A DNA stretch of 64,000 nt from a virus: positions 1 through 64,000 of IMG/VR virus record IMGVR_UViG_3300045131_002463. One strand, written 5' to 3'. Of the stretch, positions 26,199 to 37,911 are shown piece after piece. Within the stretch, counting starts at the first letter, position 1, and every line of letters starts with the position of its first letter. Made by a program: the position numbers and the translations under genes. The notes beneath the pieces are model-generated. The model searched no databases. It worked only from the letters and a program-made list of their open reading frames with translations, and had not been told where the DNA came from.

Positions 26199-28121
26199 TT
26201 AATAGTCAATCCTATAACAAAATCCAGGACTTACATCTTCCAGACCCGGACTCTCAGGGCAAAAACATACGGCCCAAGGATACCTCAATTCTTCTAACAC
26301 TCTTCTACCTGAAAAATTATAATGCACACTTTTCCCTACATCATGCATAATTATTATTCCTGTCTTTTTAAGTTTAGGAATCCAGATATCTAGTTCTCTC
26401 TTACCTGCTTCATACGAGTGACTAGCTACATCATGGTGGATTATATCAAGTGAATTATCCTCAAACTGCTCCGCTGCATTCTCTGCCAAGTCCTGTATAA
26501 AAAATGTTTTTTGATTATCAATAAGCGGAAAAAGGTGAGGATGTATATTTGTGTCTATAAACGTAGCTTTTCTAAGTGTATACCCTAAGTTATTAATAAA
26601 GAAACGCGCACTCAATCCCTGATCTGATCCTAATTCTACAATATTAATAGGTCCGCCACTAACTCTATTTAAAGCAAAATCTACTGCAAATTTATAGAAT
26701 TCCTCAAATAGTGTAAATTGTGTGGGATGAACAAGATCTTCATAAGAATAATTTCGAATTTGTTCTTTTTCTTCCTCCGTCATAATTTCTTTAAAATCAT
26801 TATAGCCCTTAAAGATAACAGCAGCCGCTTCAGGTGTTCCTTCATTTAATATTCTAACAATAGCCATTTCTTCATTATAACATATTATAGATTTAATACT
26901 TTCTTTGATCTCTACATTATTAAAATTTTTTACTATCATATAATTATTAGGATCAATATGTATTTCTGTGGCCTGAAAATGAGGCTTTAGATAATCAGGG
27001 ACGTGTTTATTACTAAATAACCAAACACTATTATGTTCCTGTAATCCATCCTGTATCTCACAGTTACCACATCTCATGTGATAATAAGAAGCTTCATCCA
27101 TTCTACCTAATCTCTGACAGGCTACAGACATCCACCTCAGGGGGGCTATAGTCCTCATAGCAACAAAATCAAAAATAACAGGAGCAGATACCGCATTAAT
27201 AGCGTGCTCGTACCAGACAGCCGCTAAGGCCCATTTTTCTTGAACTCTATAAATATCCCCTAGCAGGGTAGAGGCAAAAGCAGCTTTAGGGTACATATTT
27301 ACAGCAGTAAGCCCGGTATCAATCGCTTTATCAAATTCTCCCTGAGCTACATAGATATTCATTAGATCTAAATATGCCTGATATTTTTCGGTGACATTGT
27401 CACTTATATTTAAGTAAACATAATAACTAGGAATAGCATTATAGTAATCGTTGTTATTATACAACTCTCGGGATAAATAAAATAAATTTCTAGCATTACC
27501 GGGTTCCTTTTGTAACGCATCCTGTAGAATTTTTATATTACGGGTACGTTTCTTATTACTTTCCTCTGGGGTTTCCATTTTATTATGAATAAGCTTATAT
27601 TCATCCCAAGTAACCTCTCCTGCATATTCAGGCAAAACAAGTTGCTCTACTTCGTGTGCGGCCCCCACCCATGTATAAGGACTTTTTCCGTCTTCTGTAA
27701 CTTTCCAAAAACGTTTTCTATTTAAAATTAATCCTTCAGTATAATTATAGGGAAGAATAACTGAGTTAGGTTTGGCTGCTTCTAATCTTTCTGTAAGCCT
27801 ATCAAAATTCACAGAGGGATCCCACACATCATCACTATCCACCCAGTAAACATAATCACATTCTGGATATTTTCCTAGTAGTATAGATAAGCAATTATTT
27901 CTAGCTTTAGAAAAATCATTTTCCCACATTTGTTTATATACATATAAATCAGGAAGATAGGTCTCTCTAAATTCAAGCAATTTATCAGTAAGCTCTTTAG
28001 AAGCGGGGGCATCTATAGCTAAAACTACAACATTAGCTAGTGTCTCTTGTGCTTTAAGACACTCTACAATTTCATCTAAATCATTTCTCGCAATAACATA
28101 ACATCCGATAATTATTGACAT
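26199..28121 (-). CDS. Glycosyltransferase (GT2) - TPR - methyltransferase fusion, 640 aa
   Basis: Residues 1-190: GT2-like domain (IIIGCYVIARNDLDEIVECL, then ECDYVYWVDSDDVWD with the DxDD metal/sugar-nucleotide site near residue 96). Residues 200-340: helical repeats of TPR type (ARNLFYLSRELYNNNDYYNAIPSYYVYL and following). Residues 480-620: Rossmann methyltransferase-like domain (INIVELGSDQGLSARFFINNL, LDIIHHDVASHSYEAGKRELDIW, GIIIMHDVG). It could decorate a surface glycan, phage DNA or a virion protein. AGGAGAAAAA ribosome site. Confidence 0.82.
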   Translation of the reverse strand: MSIIIGCYVIARNDLDEIVECLKAQETLANVVVLAIDAPASKELTDKLLEFRETYLPDLYVYKQMWENDFSKARNNCLSILLGKYPECDYVYWVDSDDVWDPSVNFDRLTERLEAAKPNSVILPYNYTEGLILNRKRFWKVTEDGKSPYTWVGAAHEVEQLVLPEYAGEVTWDEYKLIHNKMETPEESNKKRTRNIKILQDALQKEPGNARNLFYLSRELYNNNDYYNAIPSYYVYLNISDNVTEKYQAYLDLMNIYVAQGEFDKAIDTGLTAVNMYPKAAFASTLLGDIYRVQEKWALAAVWYEHAINAVSAPVIFDFVAMRTIAPLRWMSVACQRLGRMDEASYYHMRCGNCEIQDGLQEHNSVWLFSNKHVPDYLKPHFQATEIHIDPNNYMIVKNFNNVEIKESIKSIICYNEEMAIVRILNEGTPEAAAVIFKGYNDFKEIMTEEEKEQIRNYSYEDLVHPTQFTLFEEFYKFAVDFALNRVSGGPINIVELGSDQGLSARFFINNLGYTLRKATFIDTNIHPHLFPLIDNQKTFFIQDLAENAAEQFEDNSLDIIHHDVASHSYEAGKRELDIWIPKLKKTGIIIMHDVGKSVHYNFSGRRVLEELRYPWAVCFCPESPGLEDVSPGFCYRIDY

Positions 28122-28140: not shown

Positions 28141-28216
28141 TGGTAGGACGGGCCGGTTATGCTCCGGCTACCTCAGGGGCCACAACCCTGTGTTCTGCTA
28201 ATTGAACTACCGCCCT
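28141..28216 (-). tRNA. tRNA-His (GTG)
   Basis: Acceptor AGGGCGG/CCGTCCT, D stem GTTC/GAAC, anticodon stem CAGGG/CCCTG with loop TTGTGGC, T stem GCCGG/CCGGC, ACCA encoded. Anticodon GTG reads CAC/CAT. The T-loop (AGCATAA) departs from TTCRANY. The base before position 1 is G, as the extra G-1 of tRNA-His requires. Confidence 0.9.
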
Positions 28217-30480: not shown

Positions 30481-31500
30481 TTATTTTTCTTTTAGAAGAT
30501 ACTCATTATTATGGACCTTCGCACTGAGTAAACTGTAACCTAGCGCAGGTGAAAGCCTAGACACAACAGGTCTTATAACTATACCTTCTCTCTGATTCTT
30601 AGTGCCTTCATAATACCCTTCTGCCTTCTTCAGTAGATCATCAAGTGTATGATTAAAAGTATACTCATCTTCAATAGGGACTGTTTTAAGCCCTAATTTC
30701 TTACAGACCTCAAGAAGCTCTTCTTTACCTCCATACACTCCCCTATCTAAGAAGAACACGTTAAAAGCGAAAGCATCTAAACCTTTTAACTGTAAAGGAT
30801 TTTTCTGCACGCCTTCTCCGCATAACTCAAGTTGAATGTATATATTCTCATTCAACGCCGCAAACTTTTCTTCTAAACCATAACTAAGGGCTACCTTCCA
30901 GAAAGCATTGGTTTCGTCTTTATCTAAATTCAAATTTCTAGAGCATACGCCAAAAGGATCTTCAATTCCTTTATTATAATACACTGTCATAGAAGATCCG
31001 TCAAGCTTTATTGTCTGATATATATCTAGTCCGGCGAATTCATAGAAAAGTTTAAGGTGACTCTGTAGGCGGTATTCATCAGTTTTTCTAACGAATACAG
31101 GCAGCGTTCCTTTAGTATTTCCGCCTAGTTTAGCAGAAGGACCTGAGGCCTCATAAGGATCATATTTCTTAACCCCAAGTTGCCGAGTGACATCATCCCC
31201 TTCCTGAAGATAACTCTTATTAAGATTAAGAGAAGCAATAGGAAGAGCTAGGCCCTGACTTAGTGTCCCTTTCAATCTCATTGTCTTTACCCGAAATTTT
31301 CTCGGGCGCATAAATTCGAAAACTTCCTGCTCAGGAAGGATAGAGTCTACTTCAAAATAAGCGCATAAGTCTCCTACCTGAAATTCCCCCTTCCTAGTTA
31401 CCGCTCTCCATCCCATTACCTCGGCAAGTTCAATAAAATCGGCACCTTCTATCGGGGTTAAAGACTTAATACGCTGAATTGTAACTAACGATCTTTCCAT
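30481..31500 (-). CDS. RNA ligase, Rnl5 (DRB0094) type
   Basis: The N-terminal part (~110 aa, MERSLVTIQRIKSLTPIEGADFIELAEVMGWRAV...VGDLCAYFEVDS) matches the N-terminal OB domain of the DraRnl family. Around residue 164 the nucleotidyl-lysine motif KLDGSS appears, followed by IQLELCGEG (motif III-like), DAFAFNVF and EGIVIRP (motif IV) and a late Lys (SAKVHNNEYLLK, motif V). It seals nicked or broken RNA with ATP via a lysyl-AMP. 339 aa is the usual length. It lies next to tRNAs, RtcB and Ro60. Confidence 0.9.
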   Translation of the reverse strand: MERSLVTIQRIKSLTPIEGADFIELAEVMGWRAVTRKGEFQVGDLCAYFEVDSILPEQEVFEFMRPRKFRVKTMRLKGTLSQGLALPIASLNLNKSYLQEGDDVTRQLGVKKYDPYEASGPSAKLGGNTKGTLPVFVRKTDEYRLQSHLKLFYEFAGLDIYQTIKLDGSSMTVYYNKGIEDPFGVCSRNLNLDKDETNAFWKVALSYGLEEKFAALNENIYIQLELCGEGVQKNPLQLKGLDAFAFNVFFLDRGVYGGKEELLEVCKKLGLKTVPIEDEYTFNHTLDDLLKKAEGYYEGTKNQREGIVIRPVVSRLSPALGYSLLSAKVHNNEYLLKEK

Positions 31501-31746
31501 TTATTTCTCCGTCAACCATTTTATGTTAATTTTTAAATGACTACAAATCTCATCAACAGAATATCTTTCCTCTCCCTCCTGCCCATACCAGATATCAACA
31601 TGCTCAGACATACCATCAACTTTCACCATGACATTTACTCTATATCCTTCTTCCTGCCTAGTAAAAATGGCATTACCTGCTGTATATAAATTATCATACT
31701 CATCCTGTCCCGGAAATAAAGTTATTTTATAATTGAAGGAATCCAT
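31501..31746 (-). CDS. Hypothetical 81-aa protein
   Basis: Begins MDSFNYKITLFPGQDEYDNLYTAG. Acidic alpha/beta. Overlaps the DUF3310 gene by one base. Unknown. Confidence 0.72.
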   Translation of the reverse strand: MDSFNYKITLFPGQDEYDNLYTAGNAIFTRQEEGYRVNVMVKVDGMSEHVDIWYGQEGEERYSVDEICSHLKINIKWLTEK

Positions 31747-32054
31747 TATTTTTCCATTTCCTCAATTTTTTTATTCAGAAACCAAGCGGCCTTTTTCAGG
31801 TCTTCTAGCGGCTTACCCTTTCTCTGATATCTCGATAGATATTTTATCACTGACCCAAGATAAAAATCAAGCTCCCATGCGTTTATCACATCAATAGGCT
31901 GTATAGAAGAGTACTGATAATGCTCTGGTTTATTTACTGGATCAGCCTCTTCCTTAGGAGGTTTACATTTAGGCATAGGAGGGAACTTAGTTACCCTAGG
32001 CAAGCCATAAGAATATGAACCATAATGCCCTACTAGTAGATTATTCTCGCTCAT
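31746..32054 (-). CDS. DUF3310 protein
   Basis: DPVNKPEHYQYSSIQPIDVINAWELDFYLGSVIKYLSRYQRKGKPLEDLKKAAWFLNKKI is the DUF3310 signature (PxHY...IQPIDVI...F..G..IKYL.R...KG...DLKKA.W). The family is frequent in phages; its role is not established. Here a Pro/Lys-rich 40-aa N-terminus precedes it. Confidence 0.9.
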   Translation of the reverse strand: MSENNLLVGHYGSYSYGLPRVTKFPPMPKCKPPKEEADPVNKPEHYQYSSIQPIDVINAWELDFYLGSVIKYLSRYQRKGKPLEDLKKAAWFLNKKIEEMEK

Positions 32055-32061
32055 TTATTAG

Positions 32062-32919
32062 TTATCCTTTCAACGATGCCACAGGAGTTAACTCAATAAC
32101 TATATCTACTAAATCTTCCTGGTTTTTCATTACGACTGTAATATCTTTATAGCTTCCTACGGCTTCGTCTAAATCTGCTTGGTTTCTAATACCATGGACA
32201 ATGCCTTGATCATCTAGCATCTTTTTTTCTACTTCTAAATTTAACTCGGCCTTAGCCCTAGTTCTACTCATTGTCCTTCCTGCTCCATGAGAACTAGAAA
32301 AGAAAGAATCAGGATTACCTTTTCCCTTTACAATATAGCTTTTAGTGCCGAGACTGCCGGGGATTATTCCTATTTCTCCTTTTTTAGCGGAGGTAGCCCC
32401 TTTTCTATGCACTATAAAATTTTCTTTAAAATGATGCTCATAAGAGGCATAGTTATGAGCGACGTAATATTCCTGAATTACGCTACCTTTAAATCTTTCT
32501 TCTAAAATGTCTTTAATAGTATTAGCTACAATAGCATGATTAAATTTAGCATAAGTCAGACATAAATTCATAGCAGTCCAGTATTCTTCCCCTAGATAAG
32601 AATTTCTGGGTAAAAAATGTAATTCCCAATTAGGGTCTACTTTACTATAATATCTATCGTTTTCTTCCCTAGCCTTTTTATTATAGTAGTTGCCTACTTG
32701 TTGTCCTAAGTTTCTGCTCCCAAAATGTAACATAAACCATATGTTACCTTCATTATCTTTCTGTAATTCACAAAAATGGTTCCCTTCTCCGCAGCTACCA
32801 CACCTAGGAATCTGATGCCTTATAACTTTTCGTATTTCGGGTGGAAGAGAAATATATATCTTTTTAAACTCTTCCGATTTTACCCATTCTTCATAGTCTT
32901 TTGTAATCAAAATGAACAA
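32062..32919 (-). CDS. rtcB: RtcB RNA ligase, C-terminal half
   Basis: Contains the RtcB motifs GEGNHFCELQ and HFGSRNLGQQ, then HRKGATSAKKGEIGIIPGSLGTKSYIV and SSSHGAGRTMSRTRA with the histidine that is guanylylated. Together with the 133-aa N-terminal half at 33646-34047 this gives about 418 aa, the normal RtcB length. A homing endonuclease gene lies between the halves. The start (a TTG near 32919 or 32910) is poorly supported. The halves may assemble as a split enzyme, or this half may be translated by coupling. Confidence 0.88.
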   Translation of the reverse strand: MFILITKDYEEWVKSEEFKKIYISLPPEIRKVIRHQIPRCGSCGEGNHFCELQKDNEGNIWFMLHFGSRNLGQQVGNYYNKKAREENDRYYSKVDPNWELHFLPRNSYLGEEYWTAMNLCLTYAKFNHAIVANTIKDILEERFKGSVIQEYYVAHNYASYEHHFKENFIVHRKGATSAKKGEIGIIPGSLGTKSYIVKGKGNPDSFFSSSHGAGRTMSRTRAKAELNLEVEKKMLDDQGIVHGIRNQADLDEAVGSYKDITVVMKNQEDLVDIVIELTPVASLKG

Positions 32920-33653
32920 CTCTCCCAGTTGAGATAATTATCTATATTAGACACAGTGCCTTCTTTGTCTGCTTTAAATTCAGACTCCCACACAACTATC
33001 ACCAAATAACCCATATCCCGTAAGGACTGCATTCTAGCTTCATCCTTATCCCATATACTTTGGGCAGGTATTCCTTTTATTAGATCATCGGTATTATACC
33101 TAGAAGGATTAGCATGCCAGTAATCGCCAAAGAATTCAATAATAGTTCCTTCTTTCTCCGCGACTGCGTCCGGTAAGAACCATTTACCCTCTTCGTTGTG
33201 AAGTGTTATTTTTTCTACATCACATACTTCTTTCAACATAGAGAATAGTTCAAGTTCTAATTTGCTTTCATTACATGAAAAATTATTATTGTTTGGAGAT
33301 ATCTTTTCCTCTCTCCAACTTTTTGTCATATGCTCACTTCTAATTGTTTTCTGTTCCGGGTTGTCCTTATACCATTTAGCGATACGCTTGCTTTGCTCCT
33401 CCTTAAACCCCTCTCTCCTAGGCTTAGATACCGCTTTTATAACCTTGGCTCTGTACTCAGGGTCCTTCCATTTTTCCACAGAGGCTACTTTGTTTATTGC
33501 TACTAATTTATCTTTAGTAGCTTGTGTATGCTTTTTACCATAAAAAGGATTATTGATGCCCGACCTATCTCTGTGTTTGGTACAAAATCCACTTTTATTT
33601 TTTAAGGATAAAGTTCTACCACAAACAGGGCACACTCTATCTATGTTATTCAT
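32907..33653 (-). CDS. Homing endonuclease (NUMOD3 + Vsr/PD-(D/E)XK-like), inside rtcB
   Basis: N-terminal zinc-ribbon CPVCGRTLSLKNKSGFC, then NNPFYGKKHTQATKDKL (NUMOD3 DNA-binding motif) and a second repeat-like basic region. C-terminal nuclease like Vsr-type homing enzymes: FLPDAVAEKEGTIIEFFGDYWHANPSRYN ... DKDEARMQSLRDMGYLVIVVWESEF. The ORF overlaps the rtcB N-terminal ORF by 8 bases and the C-terminal ORF by 13, so there is no room for an intron. Confidence 0.85.
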   Translation of the reverse strand: MNNIDRVCPVCGRTLSLKNKSGFCTKHRDRSGINNPFYGKKHTQATKDKLVAINKVASVEKWKDPEYRAKVIKAVSKPRREGFKEEQSKRIAKWYKDNPEQKTIRSEHMTKSWREEKISPNNNNFSCNESKLELELFSMLKEVCDVEKITLHNEEGKWFLPDAVAEKEGTIIEFFGDYWHANPSRYNTDDLIKGIPAQSIWDKDEARMQSLRDMGYLVIVVWESEFKADKEGTVSNIDNYLNWESCSF

Positions 33654-34047
33654 TATTCATCTCTTTTTCTAGTGTTTCTAAATAGTTTACTAAATCTTCA
33701 TCAGGTTCTGGATAATTACCCAACCCGGACGGCACCGCTTCCCTAATTGTCCCTATGGTTTTTTTTAAGTCTTCCTTTGTAAGATTTTTAATGTTTAAAT
33801 TTGTTTTATAGGCAGACATTGAGCATCCAATATCTACCCCTACGCCATTGATAACGAGAGTGTTTTTCGTAGCAAAGATTGCGCCAATGCAGGGACCTTT
33901 TCCAAAATGAGCGTCCCCCATAATGGCTATATATCTACAAGTAAATGGAGCATTGGCTAAGTTCTTAGCTTGCTGCAATGCTCCATCTTCAATGTCATCT
34001 AGCCACATCTTAATAGGAATACGTTCAGAAGAAATTACTTTTTTCAT
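33646..34047 (-). CDS. rtcB: RtcB RNA ligase, N-terminal half
   Basis: MKKVISSERIPIKMWLDDIEDGALQQAKNLANAP...IMGDAHFGKGPCIGAIFATKNTLVINGVGVDIGCSMSAYKTN. The DAHFGKG and GVDIGCSM motifs hold metal-binding Asp, His and Cys residues of RtcB. It stops after EKEMNNE, where the endonuclease gene begins. Start at 34047 because GAGGACTAAT precedes it. RtcB joins 2',3'-cyclic phosphate or 3'-phosphate RNA ends to 5'-OH ends. Confidence 0.88.
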   Translation of the reverse strand: MKKVISSERIPIKMWLDDIEDGALQQAKNLANAPFTCRYIAIMGDAHFGKGPCIGAIFATKNTLVINGVGVDIGCSMSAYKTNLNIKNLTKEDLKKTIGTIREAVPSGLGNYPEPDEDLVNYLETLEKEMNNE

Positions 34048-34048
34048 A

Positions 34049-34426
34049 TTAGTCCTCTTCATTATCCTGCGTTTTCCCTATTCTTTCCATGAATCTTCTG
34101 ACATCTTCAGCCACATCTCCTAGAAGCTCATATACTTTAGCTCTCTCCCAATCAGTAGAGCATTCTAGAATCAAATCATTAAGCTCCCCTATAAAACTAT
34201 AGGTTTCCTGAATAACCGCTTCTACTACTATATCATAAGGTTTATTTACCGGTTCTTCTATGATAGGTTCTTCTTTAGATTTGTTGGTAAAGTCTATTCC
34301 TGAAAAAGCTGTGGGCTCCCATGTACCCCATTCAGCGGTAGGGTCTGTTACTTTCCATGCTTCCCCTGCGTTATGAAGAAAAAAGGGTCTTCCGTATTCA
34401 TCACGTACAATTTTTGGTTCCATCAT
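34049..34426 (-). CDS. Hypothetical 125-aa acidic protein
   Basis: Begins MMEPKIVRDEYGRPFFLHNAGEAWKVTDP. A Pro/Glu linker (EEPIIEEPVNKPYD) is followed by an acidic helical region. Own promoter at 34454. First gene of the unit that leads into rtcB. Unknown. Confidence 0.75.
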   Translation of the reverse strand: MMEPKIVRDEYGRPFFLHNAGEAWKVTDPTAEWGTWEPTAFSGIDFTNKSKEEPIIEEPVNKPYDIVVEAVIQETYSFIGELNDLILECSTDWERAKVYELLGDVAEDVRRFMERIGKTQDNEED

Positions 34427-34453
34427 TTTGCTCCTATTTTAAATTCTTTTCTA

Positions 34454-34482
34454 TGTATACCATAAATTTTAATGCTTGTCAA
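34454..34482 (-). promoter_or_regulatory. Core sigma70-type promoter for the rtcB unit
   Basis: TTGACA (34477-34482), 17-bp spacer ending TATGG, TATACA (34454-34459). Confidence 0.8.
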
Positions 34483-34563
34483 GCTTTTTTTGAAGAGGGC
34501 GAAAAAAATGCGGAGAATAGGTCATACATTCTCCGCAAACCCAATGTCGGCATGGTTAGAATT

Positions 34564-34577
34564 TGCAATCAATTGCA
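34564..34577. repeat. Palindrome copy 4 (TGCAATCAATTGCA)
   Basis: Intergenic, between the lipoprotein stop and the promoter at 34454-34482. Flanking bases extend the dyad to ATTTGCAAT..ATTGCAAAT. Confidence 0.78.
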
Positions 34578-34594
34578 AATATCAGATCAATCGG

Positions 34595-34867
34595 TTATTT
34601 TGTGCGCTTTTTAAACGATTCTTCAGTAACATCTTCTTTTGTAATTTTTACTGTTCCTGGAACATCCCAGATACGACCATCTATATCACGTATACGAAAA
34701 GTATTTCCATCCCATTCGCCATAGCCCACAACATAATGAAGATCATCTACCTCAAAAGCCTGAAGCTTACCAGACTCTTTAGCTTCTCTAGCAGCATCTC
34801 TACTGGCTTTATCTCCACATCCCGCTAATAAAAATAAACATAAGCAAAGTAAAATATATTTTTTCAT
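34595..34867 (-). CDS. Lipoprotein, 90 aa
   Basis: MKKYILLCLCLFLLAGCGDKASRD has a basic start, hydrophobic core and the lipobox LAGC, so the Cys at residue 17 is lipidated. The remainder is a small charged domain (VVGYGEWDGNTFRIRDIDGRIWDVPGTV). It could act in superinfection exclusion, as other phage lipoproteins do; not shown. Confidence 0.85.
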   Translation of the reverse strand: MKKYILLCLCLFLLAGCGDKASRDAAREAKESGKLQAFEVDDLHYVVGYGEWDGNTFRIRDIDGRIWDVPGTVKITKEDVTEESFKKRTK

Positions 34868-34882
34868 AATAAACTCCTAAGT

Positions 34883-34968
34883 TGGTGCCGTGGGATCGAT
34901 TTGCACGACCGGTGTTTCTTATGTAAATGCTCTACAGGCATTCGCCTTCGCTACTAGGCAACCACGGC
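34883..34968 (-). tRNA. tRNA-Tyr (GTA)
   Basis: Acceptor GCCGTGG/CCACGGC, D stem GCCT/AGGC, anticodon stem AATGC/GCATT with loop CTGTAGA, long class II variable region, T stem GGTCG/CGATC, ACCA encoded. The long variable arm fits bacterial tRNA-Tyr. Confidence 0.9.
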
Positions 34969-34972
34969 AAAA

Positions 34973-35052
34973 TGGAGGCAGGGGCAGGAATTAAACCTGC
35001 GTATAAGGGTAGTTTTGCAAAACTACCCACCTAATCTCTCGGTCACCCCGCC
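34973..35052 (-). tRNA. tRNA-Cys (GCA), 8-nt anticodon loop
   Basis: Acceptor GGCGGGG/CCCTGCC with discriminator T73 (the Cys identity base) and CCA encoded; T arm GCAGG/CCTGC with loop TTTAATT. The anticodon arm is a perfect inverted repeat (GTAGT...ACTAC), which leaves an 8-nt loop TTTGCAAA instead of 7 and makes the tRNA 80 nt. The identity rests on GCA and T73. Confidence 0.75.
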
Positions 35053-35058
35053 TTATCT

Positions 35059-35379
35059 TTACCCACCACCCATAAGGCGAGTAATATCGTGTTTTTCTTT
35101 TTCTAAATCTTTGCGCGCTTTTTCTGCTAAAGATTCAAGAAACTCAGCCTTCTCTCTAGTAGAGACTAAAATTTGGGCCACCGCTTCTTTAGATCTTCCT
35201 AAATAACTATTTAGTTCCTCATGCAAATTAGTCGCAAGTGCAGGAAACTGCCCATTATTTACTATTACAGGAGCAGGGTTTATAATTTCCATTTCTGGTT
35301 CAGACATAACAACTTCCTCTATCGCTTCTTGTTTTTTCTTCTTCGGGAAAGTATAATTATTTACAATTTCTATTGTCAT
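35059..35379 (-). CDS. Hypothetical 106-aa coiled-coil protein
   Basis: Begins MTIEIVNNYTFPKKKKQEAIEEVV. Residues 55-100 (LNSYLGRSKEAVAQILVSTREKAEFLESLAEKARKDLEKEKHDI) are a charged helix with coiled-coil pattern. It lies within the tRNA cluster. Unknown. Confidence 0.75.
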   Translation of the reverse strand: MTIEIVNNYTFPKKKKQEAIEEVVMSEPEMEIINPAPVIVNNGQFPALATNLHEELNSYLGRSKEAVAQILVSTREKAEFLESLAEKARKDLEKEKHDITRLMGGG

Positions 35380-35388
35380 ATTTTTTAT

Positions 35389-35464
35389 TGGCGACTCCTG
35401 CGGGGTATGATCCCGCTCCGATAGTTCGACAGACTATCATGCTGCCAGCTTACACTAAGGAGCC
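35389..35464 (-). tRNA. tRNA-Asp (GTC)
   Basis: Acceptor GGCTCCT/AGGAGTC, D stem GTGT/GCAT, anticodon stem ATAGT/ACTAT with loop CTGTCGA, T stem GCGGG/CCCGC, discriminator G73 and CCA encoded, all as in tRNA-Asp. Confidence 0.9.
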
Positions 35465-35472
35465 TTTAAAAT

Positions 35473-35592
35473 AACGCGGGTTGGATTTTAACCAACGGTT
35501 GTCTTAGCATGAACACAATTGTTGCCTAGGCTATAGTGCCCCGCCTTGATCACGCCTCTCAGGCGCTCCTCTAAACACTCGGATACCGCGTT
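35473..35592 (-). ncRNA. Aberrant 120-nt tRNA-like sequence (Leu/Ser-like)
   Basis: Acceptor-like stem AACGCGG/CCGCGTT and a T arm (GTTGG/CCAAC, loop TTAAAAT). The D region (TATCCGAGTGTTTAGAGGAG) resembles class II tRNAs. A possible anticodon stem GCGC/GCGT with loop CTGAGAG would give GAG (Leu). About 55 extra bases separate it from the T arm, and CCA is not encoded. Could be a decayed tRNA, an interrupted tRNA or a tRNA-mimic RNA. Confidence 0.45.
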
Positions 35593-35596
35593 ATAT

Positions 35597-35672
35597 TGGT
35601 AGCGGGGACCGGGGATGATCCGGCACAGACTGCCTTATGAGGGCAGTGCTCTACCAATTAAGCTACCCCGCA
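35597..35672 (-). tRNA. tRNA-Met (CAT), mismatched 1:72
   Basis: D stem GCTT/GAGC, anticodon stem CTGCC/GGCAG with loop CTCATAA, T stem GCCGG/CCGGT, ACCA encoded. Acceptor pairs 2-7 are perfect, but position 1 (T) faces T at 72. An unpaired 1:72 is a mark of initiator tRNA, but the anticodon stem lacks three consecutive G:C pairs of initiator type. A CAT anticodon could also be lysidine-modified Ile; elongator, initiator and Ile2 roles are all open. Confidence 0.85.
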
Positions 35673-35676
35673 ATAA

Positions 35677-35868
35677 TTATTCATCAAATTCAATGTTATC
35701 TAAACTAGACATGGCATCAAATTTTCTGCCTTTGGACTTCTTATTGAACATCCCACTACATATTCCAGCTGCTTGTGCGGGAAATGATCCTTCTTTTATT
35801 AGGGCGGGAATACATCTATCCATAAAGTCTTTTTCCGCTTCTCCTGGCTTGGGGTAAGGTATAGGCAT
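35677..35868 (-). CDS. 63-aa FMDRC-motif protein
   Basis: MPIPYPKPGEAEKDFMDRCIPALIKEGSFPAQAAGICSGMFNKK matches an N-terminal motif found in proteins of phage head-gene regions (P-P-G-E...F-x-x-R-C...A..IC). The tail is short and acidic. It neighbours a second copy at 35869. Confidence 0.75.
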   Translation of the reverse strand: MPIPYPKPGEAEKDFMDRCIPALIKEGSFPAQAAGICSGMFNKKSKGRKFDAMSSLDNIEFDE

Positions 35869-36081
35869 TTAAGGAGTCTCCTCTAGTGTAGGGAAGCCCC
35901 AGGTCGATTCATTATCGAGCGATGCCCCCAGGTCTGGATTTCTTTGTGATCTATTAAAAATAGCATTAGATATAATACGCGCCTCTTTCTCAGTCTTACC
36001 ATTTTCCCTTAACAAGGGAATACAACGCGCTACAAAATCATCTACATTTTCTCCTTTTACAGGATCCGGAGTTAAATTCAT
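35869..36081 (-). CDS. 70-aa FVARC-motif protein (paralogue)
   Basis: MNLTPDPVKGENVDDFVARCIPLLRENGKTEKEARIISNAIFNRS aligns with the 35677 product; it ends with a Pro/Thr/Glu-rich acidic tail. The two arose by tandem duplication. Confidence 0.75.
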   Translation of the reverse strand: MNLTPDPVKGENVDDFVARCIPLLRENGKTEKEARIISNAIFNRSQRNPDLGASLDNESTWGFPTLEETP

Positions 36082-36377
36082 GTCTTATCCTCTTTTTCAA
36101 TAATTATTCTCCTAGTCCCTAGATCTGGAGTAGAAGAAGGAGAAGCGCAACATATAGTTGCGCTTTGTTCCAATTCGAACTTGGTCTGTATTTTTTCTAT
36201 CGGCTCTCTACCCATGATTAGACCTACTATATTTTTAAATTCAAGGGAGCTGAGGCTATCGTAGGGTAGTTTGTTGTAGATATCTTCTATCTCTTCTAAA
36301 GTAGTGCTAAACCTCAATACTACATCTTGATTTCTTCCTACTGGGCTGAAGTATGAGGCGCACTCCTTTAATTCCAT
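36078..36377 (-). CDS. Hypothetical 99-aa protein with RRIIIEK tail
   Basis: Begins MELKECASYFSPVGRNQDVVLRFSTTLEEIEDIYNKL and ends GTRRIIIEKEDKT, a variant of the shared R-x-I-[VI]-[VI] tail. It lies directly downstream of Ro60 and is probably co-transcribed with it. Unknown. Confidence 0.75.
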   Translation of the reverse strand: MELKECASYFSPVGRNQDVVLRFSTTLEEIEDIYNKLPYDSLSSLEFKNIVGLIMGREPIEKIQTKFELEQSATICCASPSSTPDLGTRRIIIEKEDKT

Positions 36378-36378
36378 T

Positions 36379-37911
36379 TTACATTCCCATAATATGTCTC
36401 TTTAATGCTTTCCAAGAATCTAGCCCACCTAAAACGTGAAAAATATTAGGGGACCAGCCAGAGACCATATAAACATCTTTTTGCATAATGTCAATGGGGT
36501 AGGTACCGTAAGAAGACAAATCAAACATATATATCTTAGCAGTTGGGTTTAATTGTTTATACTTATTCCACGAACGCTCAAACGCTGATCTATTCACACT
36601 GGAATCTCGAGCCCCATAAAAATGGCTATGCCTACCAAGACCCAGATCTGAATATATCTGTGAATCCGAGAAAAACATTACATTATCTACGTGCAAATTT
36701 CCAGAAATAAGCCAATCAATTACGCGATAACCATACGTGCTTAATCCTACTGAGGGCAGCTGAACTCCGCCTATTATTTGGTTTCCAAAAGGCGCTACAG
36801 CCCAGTCATTTCCGAAAACTCCAGTTATAACTTTCCCGCATTTCTTAGCCAGCATTCTTCCTAAAAGGATGCCTACATCTATAAGTCTTATAGAAGAGTT
36901 TTTTGAAAGTGGATCATTCATAGAACCACTTACATCACACGCTATAAGCGTGGCTTCTTTTTTAAGATCCCCTATACCGGGAATATTATCAATAGAAATT
37001 ATAAGAGCTTTCTCAAACACTTCCTGAAACCTATTCATGTTCATTTGAATCTCAGGATCGCGCTCTTCCATCAATCTAGCAAAAGCAGAATACCATCTAA
37101 ATGGAAATTGTTTAGATTTAAGGATCTGTTGTTCATTCCCTAAAAGTGCTATCAATTTTTGAATATGCTCTTCACTAATACCAGCCTTCAACATGTTTTT
37201 AATATTACGAAGAGCTGCCATATAAGGAATACTATTAGTATCTAGTAGATTCTCCCATGCAGCTTTCTTAGCTACTGGATCAGAACCAGCGGCTGATATA
37301 TCCACTTCCCATGTGGTAATAGGATCTAGGGCATCCTCTAGTATCTGTTTGTATACAGAGCTTTCTTCTCCTGTTCTGGGCTTAGGGTGACATAAGCATA
37401 GGACATCTTTAAATGTAATCTTTTCTTTACTCTGCTTATCGTATTTTCTAAACTGATAACTATTAAATTTACTAAAAGATTCCGCTATACCTTTCTTTAA
37501 GGCATTAGGAATTTTTCTAATATCATGTCCGCCTTTACCTTTTATCCCCTGCCAAGCAGCTAATAGTTCTTTTATTTCATCTGCCCTAGATACAACCCTA
37601 GATACCATAGAGGCAGTAAGTTTATCGTTAAGAGCCAGCCCAACTAGCAGCACTAACGGTACCGACCTAAGGTACATATCTTTACGTAGGTAAACCGCTA
37701 AATTAGCCACGAACTGTGGGTCACATTTAGGAATTAAATCTAGAATAGTAGCAATAGTCTGATCGGTTTTCTTATAGAAAGTGTCTTGCAGTAGGTTACA
37801 AGCTGTAACCGAGTAAAGCTGTTGCTCTGGATCCAGACCTATATATGCTACTGCCCCTTCTTCGTTTACTGTTCTTCTTCGATTCTCTGCAACTTCATTA
37901 AACCTAGACAT
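36379..37911 (-). CDS. rsr: Ro60/Rsr orthologue (TROVE + VWA), 510 aa
   Basis: Residues ~10-300 are a TROVE domain (helical repeats; LYSVTACNLLQDTFYKKTDQTIATILDLIPKCDPQFVANLAVYLRKDMYLRSVPLVLLVGLAL is typical). The C-terminal VWA domain has the MIDAS motif ACDVSGSMNDP near residue 318. Ro proteins form a ring that binds misfolded RNA ends in the hole and Y RNA on the outside. 510 aa is close to the usual length. AAGGAGTTAAAAAT ribosome site; six Y-RNA-like units start 30 bases upstream. Confidence 0.95.
   Translation of the reverse strand: MSRFNEVAENRRRTVNEEGAVAYIGLDPEQQLYSVTACNLLQDTFYKKTDQTIATILDLIPKCDPQFVANLAVYLRKDMYLRSVPLVLLVGLALNDKLTASMVSRVVSRADEIKELLAAWQGIKGKGGHDIRKIPNALKKGIAESFSKFNSYQFRKYDKQSKEKITFKDVLCLCHPKPRTGEESSVYKQILEDALDPITTWEVDISAAGSDPVAKKAAWENLLDTNSIPYMAALRNIKNMLKAGISEEHIQKLIALLGNEQQILKSKQFPFRWYSAFARLMEERDPEIQMNMNRFQEVFEKALIISIDNIPGIGDLKKEATLIACDVSGSMNDPLSKNSSIRLIDVGILLGRMLAKKCGKVITGVFGNDWAVAPFGNQIIGGVQLPSVGLSTYGYRVIDWLISGNLHVDNVMFFSDSQIYSDLGLGRHSHFYGARDSSVNRSAFERSWNKYKQLNPTAKIYMFDLSSYGTYPIDIMQKDVYMVSGWSPNIFHVLGGLDSWKALKRHIMGM

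What the first reader, a model, noticed from the sequence alone, without database searches (positions are those of the whole stretch)
32062..34047. rtcB split into two ORFs by a homing endonuclease gene
The N-terminal half (DAHFGKG, GVDIGCSM) ends at 33646 and the C-terminal half (GEGNHF, SSSHGAGR) begins near 32919. The NUMOD3/Vsr-like endonuclease gene overlaps both ends (8 and 13 bases). No space for an intron or intein is visible, so the product should be a two-chain RtcB. Free-standing endonucleases splitting phage genes into functional halves are known for other enzymes (for example nrdA in phage Aeh1). The metal-binding Cys and the guanylylated His would lie on different chains.
Basis: partly seen in the sequence, partly recalled or inferred. 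Interest (0 to 1): 0.75.

Follow-up and report, generated by a model that had tools for sequence, protein, structure and literature searches.

The report
RNA ligase gene split by endonuclease
In this bacteriophage the gene for the RNA-repair enzyme RtcB is cut into two separately translated halves by a selfish DNA-cutting gene sitting in a tolerant loop of the enzyme, and the same arrangement recurs in other phages, so the enzyme probably works as two chains.

Summary
On the minus strand lie an RtcB N-terminal part (34047-33646), a 248-aa homing-endonuclease-like gene (33653-32907) and an RtcB C-terminal part (32910-32062; best-supported start TTG 32910, not 32919). The seven catalytic or metal-binding residues checked against Pyrococcus RtcB are all present, divided between the chains (Asp and Cys on the first; Asn and four His, including the guanylylated one, on the second). 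Nothing is missing: the break lies in the most variable loop, longer here (74 aa) than in close intact relatives (46-60 aa). There is no intron, intein or non-coding space. A sister phage (many flanking proteins 91-100% identical) has an uninterrupted rtcB at the same locus. The same arrangement occurs in a second phage (L014, about 50% identity in all three genes) and, with a frameshift, in a phage-like contig of a Treponema bin (L275); a related endonuclease lies directly upstream of intact rtcB in L024. The endonuclease joins an I-TevI-type DNA-binding region to a Vsr/I-Bth0305I (EDxHD) nuclease. Activity as a two-chain ligase is inferred, not shown. It is a new case, in a new enzyme, of the known phage genes-in-pieces phenomenon (Aeh1 nrdA).

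The parts
33646..34047 (-). RtcB N-terminal chain (133 aa; MKKVISS...LEKEMNNE), with D77 and C80 (numbered in the 138-aa ORF from 34062), equivalents of P. horikoshii D95 and C98
   Evidence: Pfam RtcB 1.1e-19; PDB alignment; start shared with L013
32907..33653 (-). Homing-endonuclease-like gene, 248 aa: I-TevI-type zinc finger/NUMOD3 DNA-binding region plus Vsr/EDxHD nuclease
32062..32910 (-). RtcB C-terminal chain (282 aa, TTG start) with N44, H45, H62, H152, H208 = P. horikoshii N202, H203, H234, H329, H404
   Evidence: Pfam RtcB 2.1e-73; PDB alignment; predicted fold matches RtcB
33646..33653 (-). 8-base stop/start overlap ATGAATAA joining the N half to the HEG; same layout (ATGAGTAA) in L014
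32907..32926 (-). 3' end of the HEG (codons ..W E S C S F stop) containing GGGAGAG Shine-Dalgarno and the TTGA start/stop overlap for the C half
31985..33945 (-). Approximate tract that is divergent from the sister phage L013 (contains the HEG); flanks about 90% or more identical on both sides for at least 100 bases

Best explanation
A free-standing EDxHD (Vsr-like) homing endonuclease gene invaded a phage rtcB in the variable loop between the Cys-containing part (GVDIGC) and the GNHF motif. The insertion split the gene into two coding units translated separately: the HEG by stop-start coupling to the N half, the C half from a ribosome-binding site inside the last codons of the HEG. The two RtcB chains are inferred to associate without covalent joining and rebuild one active site, with the metal-binding Asp/Cys from chain 1 and the Asn, His ligands and guanylylated His from chain 2. 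Shown: gene order, absence of a splicing element, conserved residues, empty site in a sister phage, recurrence. Inferred: that the endonuclease cuts rtcB, that it spread by homing, and that the two chains form an active 3'-P/5'-OH RNA ligase.
For: Three contiguous overlapping ORFs; both halves RtcB with all seven active-site residues checked; break in the variable loop with no loss; uninterrupted rtcB at the same locus in sister phage L013, which lacks the HEG; same arrangement and junction in L014 at about 50% identity and a distant case in L275; good Shine-Dalgarno for the C half, weak one for the HEG; HEG fold = Vsr / I-Bth0305I with I-TevI-like DNA-binding part; mosaic rtcB consistent with co-conversion; precedent of functional split NrdA in phage Aeh1 (PMC2988022).
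Against: No expression or activity data. Window chain 2 deviates at some nearly invariant positions (LHFGSR for HSGSR, NH for NR, SSSHGAGR for SCSHGAGR). L275's C half has a frameshift. Other nearby genes of the sister phages also differ in blocks without a HEG, so the mosaic need not come from homing. The L014 contig ends inside the C half.
Confidence: 0.8

Rival explanations
1. The insertion inactivated rtcB; the halves are remnants of a dispensable gene and only the endonuclease is maintained.
For: No activity shown; a second RNA ligase (TIGR02306 type, 30481-31500) lies next to it; L275's C half is frameshifted; substitutions at a few nearly invariant sites.
Against: Both halves are open and keep all catalytic residues in window and in L014 (as far as its contig reaches) although the alleles have drifted to about 50% identity; the C half has a strong Shine-Dalgarno.
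Confidence: 0.15
2. The endonuclease gene is part of a group I intron or a split-intein system that joins the halves after transcription or translation.
For: Relatives do carry inteins and a group I intron in rtcB; Vsr-like endonucleases occur in phage introns and fractured genes.
Against: No intron signal at E up to 10 in window or L014 while the control L008 scores 66.9 bits; no intein domain; zero non-coding bases, whereas phage introns carry about 350 (PMC11878797); the first 36 residues of the C half fold as RtcB-attached helices.
Confidence: 0.03
3. Assembly artefact or chimera.
For: Metagenome-derived record; rtcB is mosaic relative to L013.
Against: An independent contig (L014) has the same junction at about 50% protein identity; both junctions are orderly stop/start overlaps.
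Confidence: 0.02

Closest known systems
nrdA split by mobE in Aeromonas phage Aeh1 (genes-in-pieces ribonucleotide reductase); also T4 gene 60/mobA and gene 43 of Aeromonas phage 25
   Same: A free-standing HEG splits an enzyme gene into two separately translated parts that keep all active-site residues; no splicing element
   Different: Target is an RNA ligase; HEG is Vsr/EDxHD type, not HNH or GIY-YIG; break lies in a variable loop; activity of the pair untested
I-Bth0305I / EDxHD homing endonucleases
   Same: Vsr-fold nuclease domain (3r3p match) attached to modular DNA-binding parts
   Different: I-Bth0305I is intron-encoded; here free-standing, with an I-TevI-like zinc finger/NUMOD3 part
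Fractured genes with split inteins and Vsr-like endonucleases (Dassa et al. 2009, cited in PMC10448857; the paper itself not held)
   Same: Gene broken by a free-standing Vsr-like endonuclease gene (from memory of that paper)
   Different: No split intein here, so chains stay separate
Inteins and group I intron in rtcB of related phages (L003, L005, L008)
   Same: rtcB is the target
   Different: They sit at GVDIGC and are spliced out to one chain; here another loop, two chains

Membership tests
RtcB RNA ligase (PF01139) | Family profile match over both halves | tested here: met
   71 and 248 bits, cut-off 27
RtcB RNA ligase (PF01139) | Metal ligands and guanylylated His conserved | tested here: met
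   D95, C98, N202, H203, H234, H329, H404 equivalents, from the alignments
RtcB RNA ligase (PF01139) | GTP/Mn-dependent 3'-P/5'-OH ligation | not testable with these tools
   needs bench assay
EDxHD / Vsr-like homing endonuclease | Vsr-like nuclease fold with conserved D, E, H | tested here: met
   Foldseek to 1cw0 and 3r3p, probability 1.00; D162, E173, H180 invariant in 18 sequences
EDxHD / Vsr-like homing endonuclease | Modular DNA-binding domain (NUMOD) | tested here: met
   NUMOD3 24.6 bits over cut-off 20.4; I-TevI DNA-binding domain E 1.7e-4 by profile
EDxHD / Vsr-like homing endonuclease | Cuts the uninterrupted allele and is copied into it | not testable with these tools
   indirect only: occupied/empty pair and mosaic flanks
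Genes-in-pieces by free-standing HEG (Aeh1 nrdA type) | Uninterrupted allele at the same locus in a relative | tested here: met
   L013
Genes-in-pieces by free-standing HEG (Aeh1 nrdA type) | Two chains form an active enzyme | not testable with these tools
   not shown
Group I intron | Conserved catalytic RNA core | tested here: not met
   no match; positive control
Split intein / fractured gene with trans-splicing | Intein N and C fragments fused to the halves | tested here: not met
   no intein domain up to E = 1

The most novel reading that the evidence does not exclude
Phages hold an obligate two-chain RtcB RNA ligase, created and spread by a lineage of Vsr-like homing endonucleases specialised on rtcB that carry, inside their own last codons, the ribosome-binding site and start for whatever lies downstream, so that insertion does not kill the host gene.
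Probability: 0.45. Interest if true: 0.62.

Novelty: new member of a known kind. Interest (0 to 1): 0.5.

Why it matters
It extends HEG-made split enzymes from DNA and nucleotide metabolism to an RNA-repair ligase, offers a natural two-chain RtcB with metal ligands and nucleophile on separate chains, and gives an occupied/empty pair of sister phages in which to study how a homing endonuclease can split a gene without destroying it.

Tried and rejected
Group I intron and intein: no signal, control positive. Read-through or frameshift fusion: many in-frame stops lie between the halves. Simple monophyly of split rtcBs: a quick tree puts the window with intact L013 (SH-aLRT 96) and L014 elsewhere (the careful tree did not finish); site-by-site comparison shows a mosaic. 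Profile scans of viral contigs with N half, C half and HEG found no further split allele besides L014. Dassa 2009 is not in the library. Text searches found no paper describing a HEG-split rtcB. A spread of 60 of 649 phage records with RtcB showed no interrupted case, though some cover only part of the query.

Full report
What is there. The window lies in a 98-kb virus record. On the minus strand, a 133-aa RtcB N-terminal part (34047-33646), a 248-aa endonuclease gene (33653-32907) and a 282-aa RtcB C-terminal part (32910-32062) follow each other with no intergenic space. Pfam RtcB matches the first over profile positions 1-85 and the last over 139-426. About 5% of random positions score as well, so the energy alone is only suggestive.

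Nothing is lost at the junction. Read against P. horikoshii RtcB (positions counted from the printed alignments), chain 1 carries the equivalents of D95 and C98, chain 2 those of N202, H203, H234, H329 and the guanylylated H404. The break lies between VPSG and GNHF, a loop of 46-60 residues in dozens of intact close relatives and 63-73 in four phage enzymes of the E. coli type; here it is 29+45 residues. The C half alone is predicted with mean pLDDT 86, its first 36 residues as three helices, and it matches RtcB structures (4dwq, TM 0.77 by query length).

No splicing element. Permissive Rfam scans of the window and of L014 show no intron, whereas the same scan finds a 66.9-bit group I intron in rtcB of L008. 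No intein domain is found in the three proteins. Relatives do carry inteins and an intron in rtcB, but at the GVDIGC motif, so rtcB is a frequent target and the window's case is of another kind at another site.

The endonuclease. Its N-terminal part resembles the I-TevI zinc finger/NUMOD3 DNA-binding region and its C-terminal half Vsr. The predicted structure matches Vsr (1cw0) and the catalytic domain of I-Bth0305I (3r3p), the EDxHD prototype; D162, E173 and H180 are invariant in 18 homologues. Its own Shine-Dalgarno is at background level (-2.9) and its start overlaps the N-half stop by 8 bases, which suggests coupled, low expression; several T4 free-standing endonuclease genes overlap the upstream gene in the same manner (PMC2988022).

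Occupied and empty sites. L013 (102.7-kb record) is a sister phage: same gene order, many flanking proteins 91-100% identical, an uninterrupted 391-aa rtcB and no copy of the endonuclease. Base-level comparison shows about 90% identity up to about codon 35 of rtcB, then a divergent tract that ends inside the next gene (DUF3310), where identity returns to 95% or more. Among sites where the window agrees with only one of L013 and split L014, those left of about residue -64 from the junction agree with L013 (27 of 30), and those from there on with L014 (50 of 65); 0 of 500 shuffles were as extreme. Co-conversion of flanks during homing would leave this pattern, but other nearby stretches also diverge in blocks without a HEG (RNA ligase, end of TROVE), so ordinary recombination cannot be excluded.

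Recurrence. L014 (152-kb record; only these three genes match the window in the 6.6 kb held) has N-HEG-C with the junction at the same residue; the last eight residues of the N half are identical (LEKEMNNE) while all three genes differ by about half. The Treponema-bin contig L275 has N half, HEG (41%) and C half in the same loop of a much more distant RtcB, with AGGAGG at the HEG end, but its C half carries a 5-base frameshift at GGG|NH. In L024 a 52% identical HEG lies directly upstream of an uninterrupted (contig-truncated) rtcB, and its last codons (NWESCSI*) supply the Shine-Dalgarno and overlapping ATG of rtcB as they do for the C half in L014. A more distant Vsr-type HEG precedes intact rtcB in L215. 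Other family members sit elsewhere (L025, L274), so the association with rtcB is strong but not exclusive. The window HEG is no closer to L014's (47%) than to L024's (52%), so whether the two split alleles stem from one insertion is open; the shared residues around the junction favour a common split segment.

Interpretation. The simplest account is insertion of a free-standing homing endonuclease into the most tolerant loop of rtcB, with translation signals at both ends that keep both halves expressed, giving a two-chain ligase, as shown experimentally for Aeh1 NrdA (reviewed in PMC2988022). Conservation of the catalytic residues in two split alleles that have drifted to about 50% identity argues against decay. 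Ligase activity, subunit association and DNA cleavage are not shown. The phenomenon is known; the enzyme, the nuclease type and the recurrence at one loop in divergent rtcBs appear new as far as the searches here reach.

Noticed in passing
window 30481-37911 (-): An RNA-repair island: split RtcB, an ATP-dependent RNA ligase (TIGR02306), a TROVE/Ro60-like protein and tRNA-Tyr, -Asp and -Met genes (tRNA-His at 28141-28216); all on the minus strand.
   Followed up: partly
L003, L005, L200, L239, L264; L008/L006/L011: rtcB of related phages carries extra in-frame inserts: L003 and L005 read as inteins at the GVDIGC motif (the long ORFs of the others look alike by length only); L008 has a group I intron there.
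   Followed up: partly
L275:3838-3960: The C half of the third split rtcB has five extra bases (TAGGT) at the GGG|NH codons, a frameshift in the most conserved motif; sequencing error, decay or something else.
   Followed up: no
L274:1293-4218: A relative of the HEG (49%) lies between a Rad50/SbcC-like ORF that stops just after a CPFC zinc-hook-like motif and an SbcD-like phosphoesterase gene; possibly another gene broken or bordered by this family.
   Followed up: partly
window 36050-36850 and 30520-31500: Between the sister phages, the end of TROVE and the whole RNA ligase gene fall to about 55-75% DNA identity in blocks with sharp edges, without any HEG nearby.
   Followed up: no
window 26199-28121 (-): 640-aa protein joining a family 2 glycosyltransferase, TPR-like repeats and a methyltransferase domain.
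   Followed up: no
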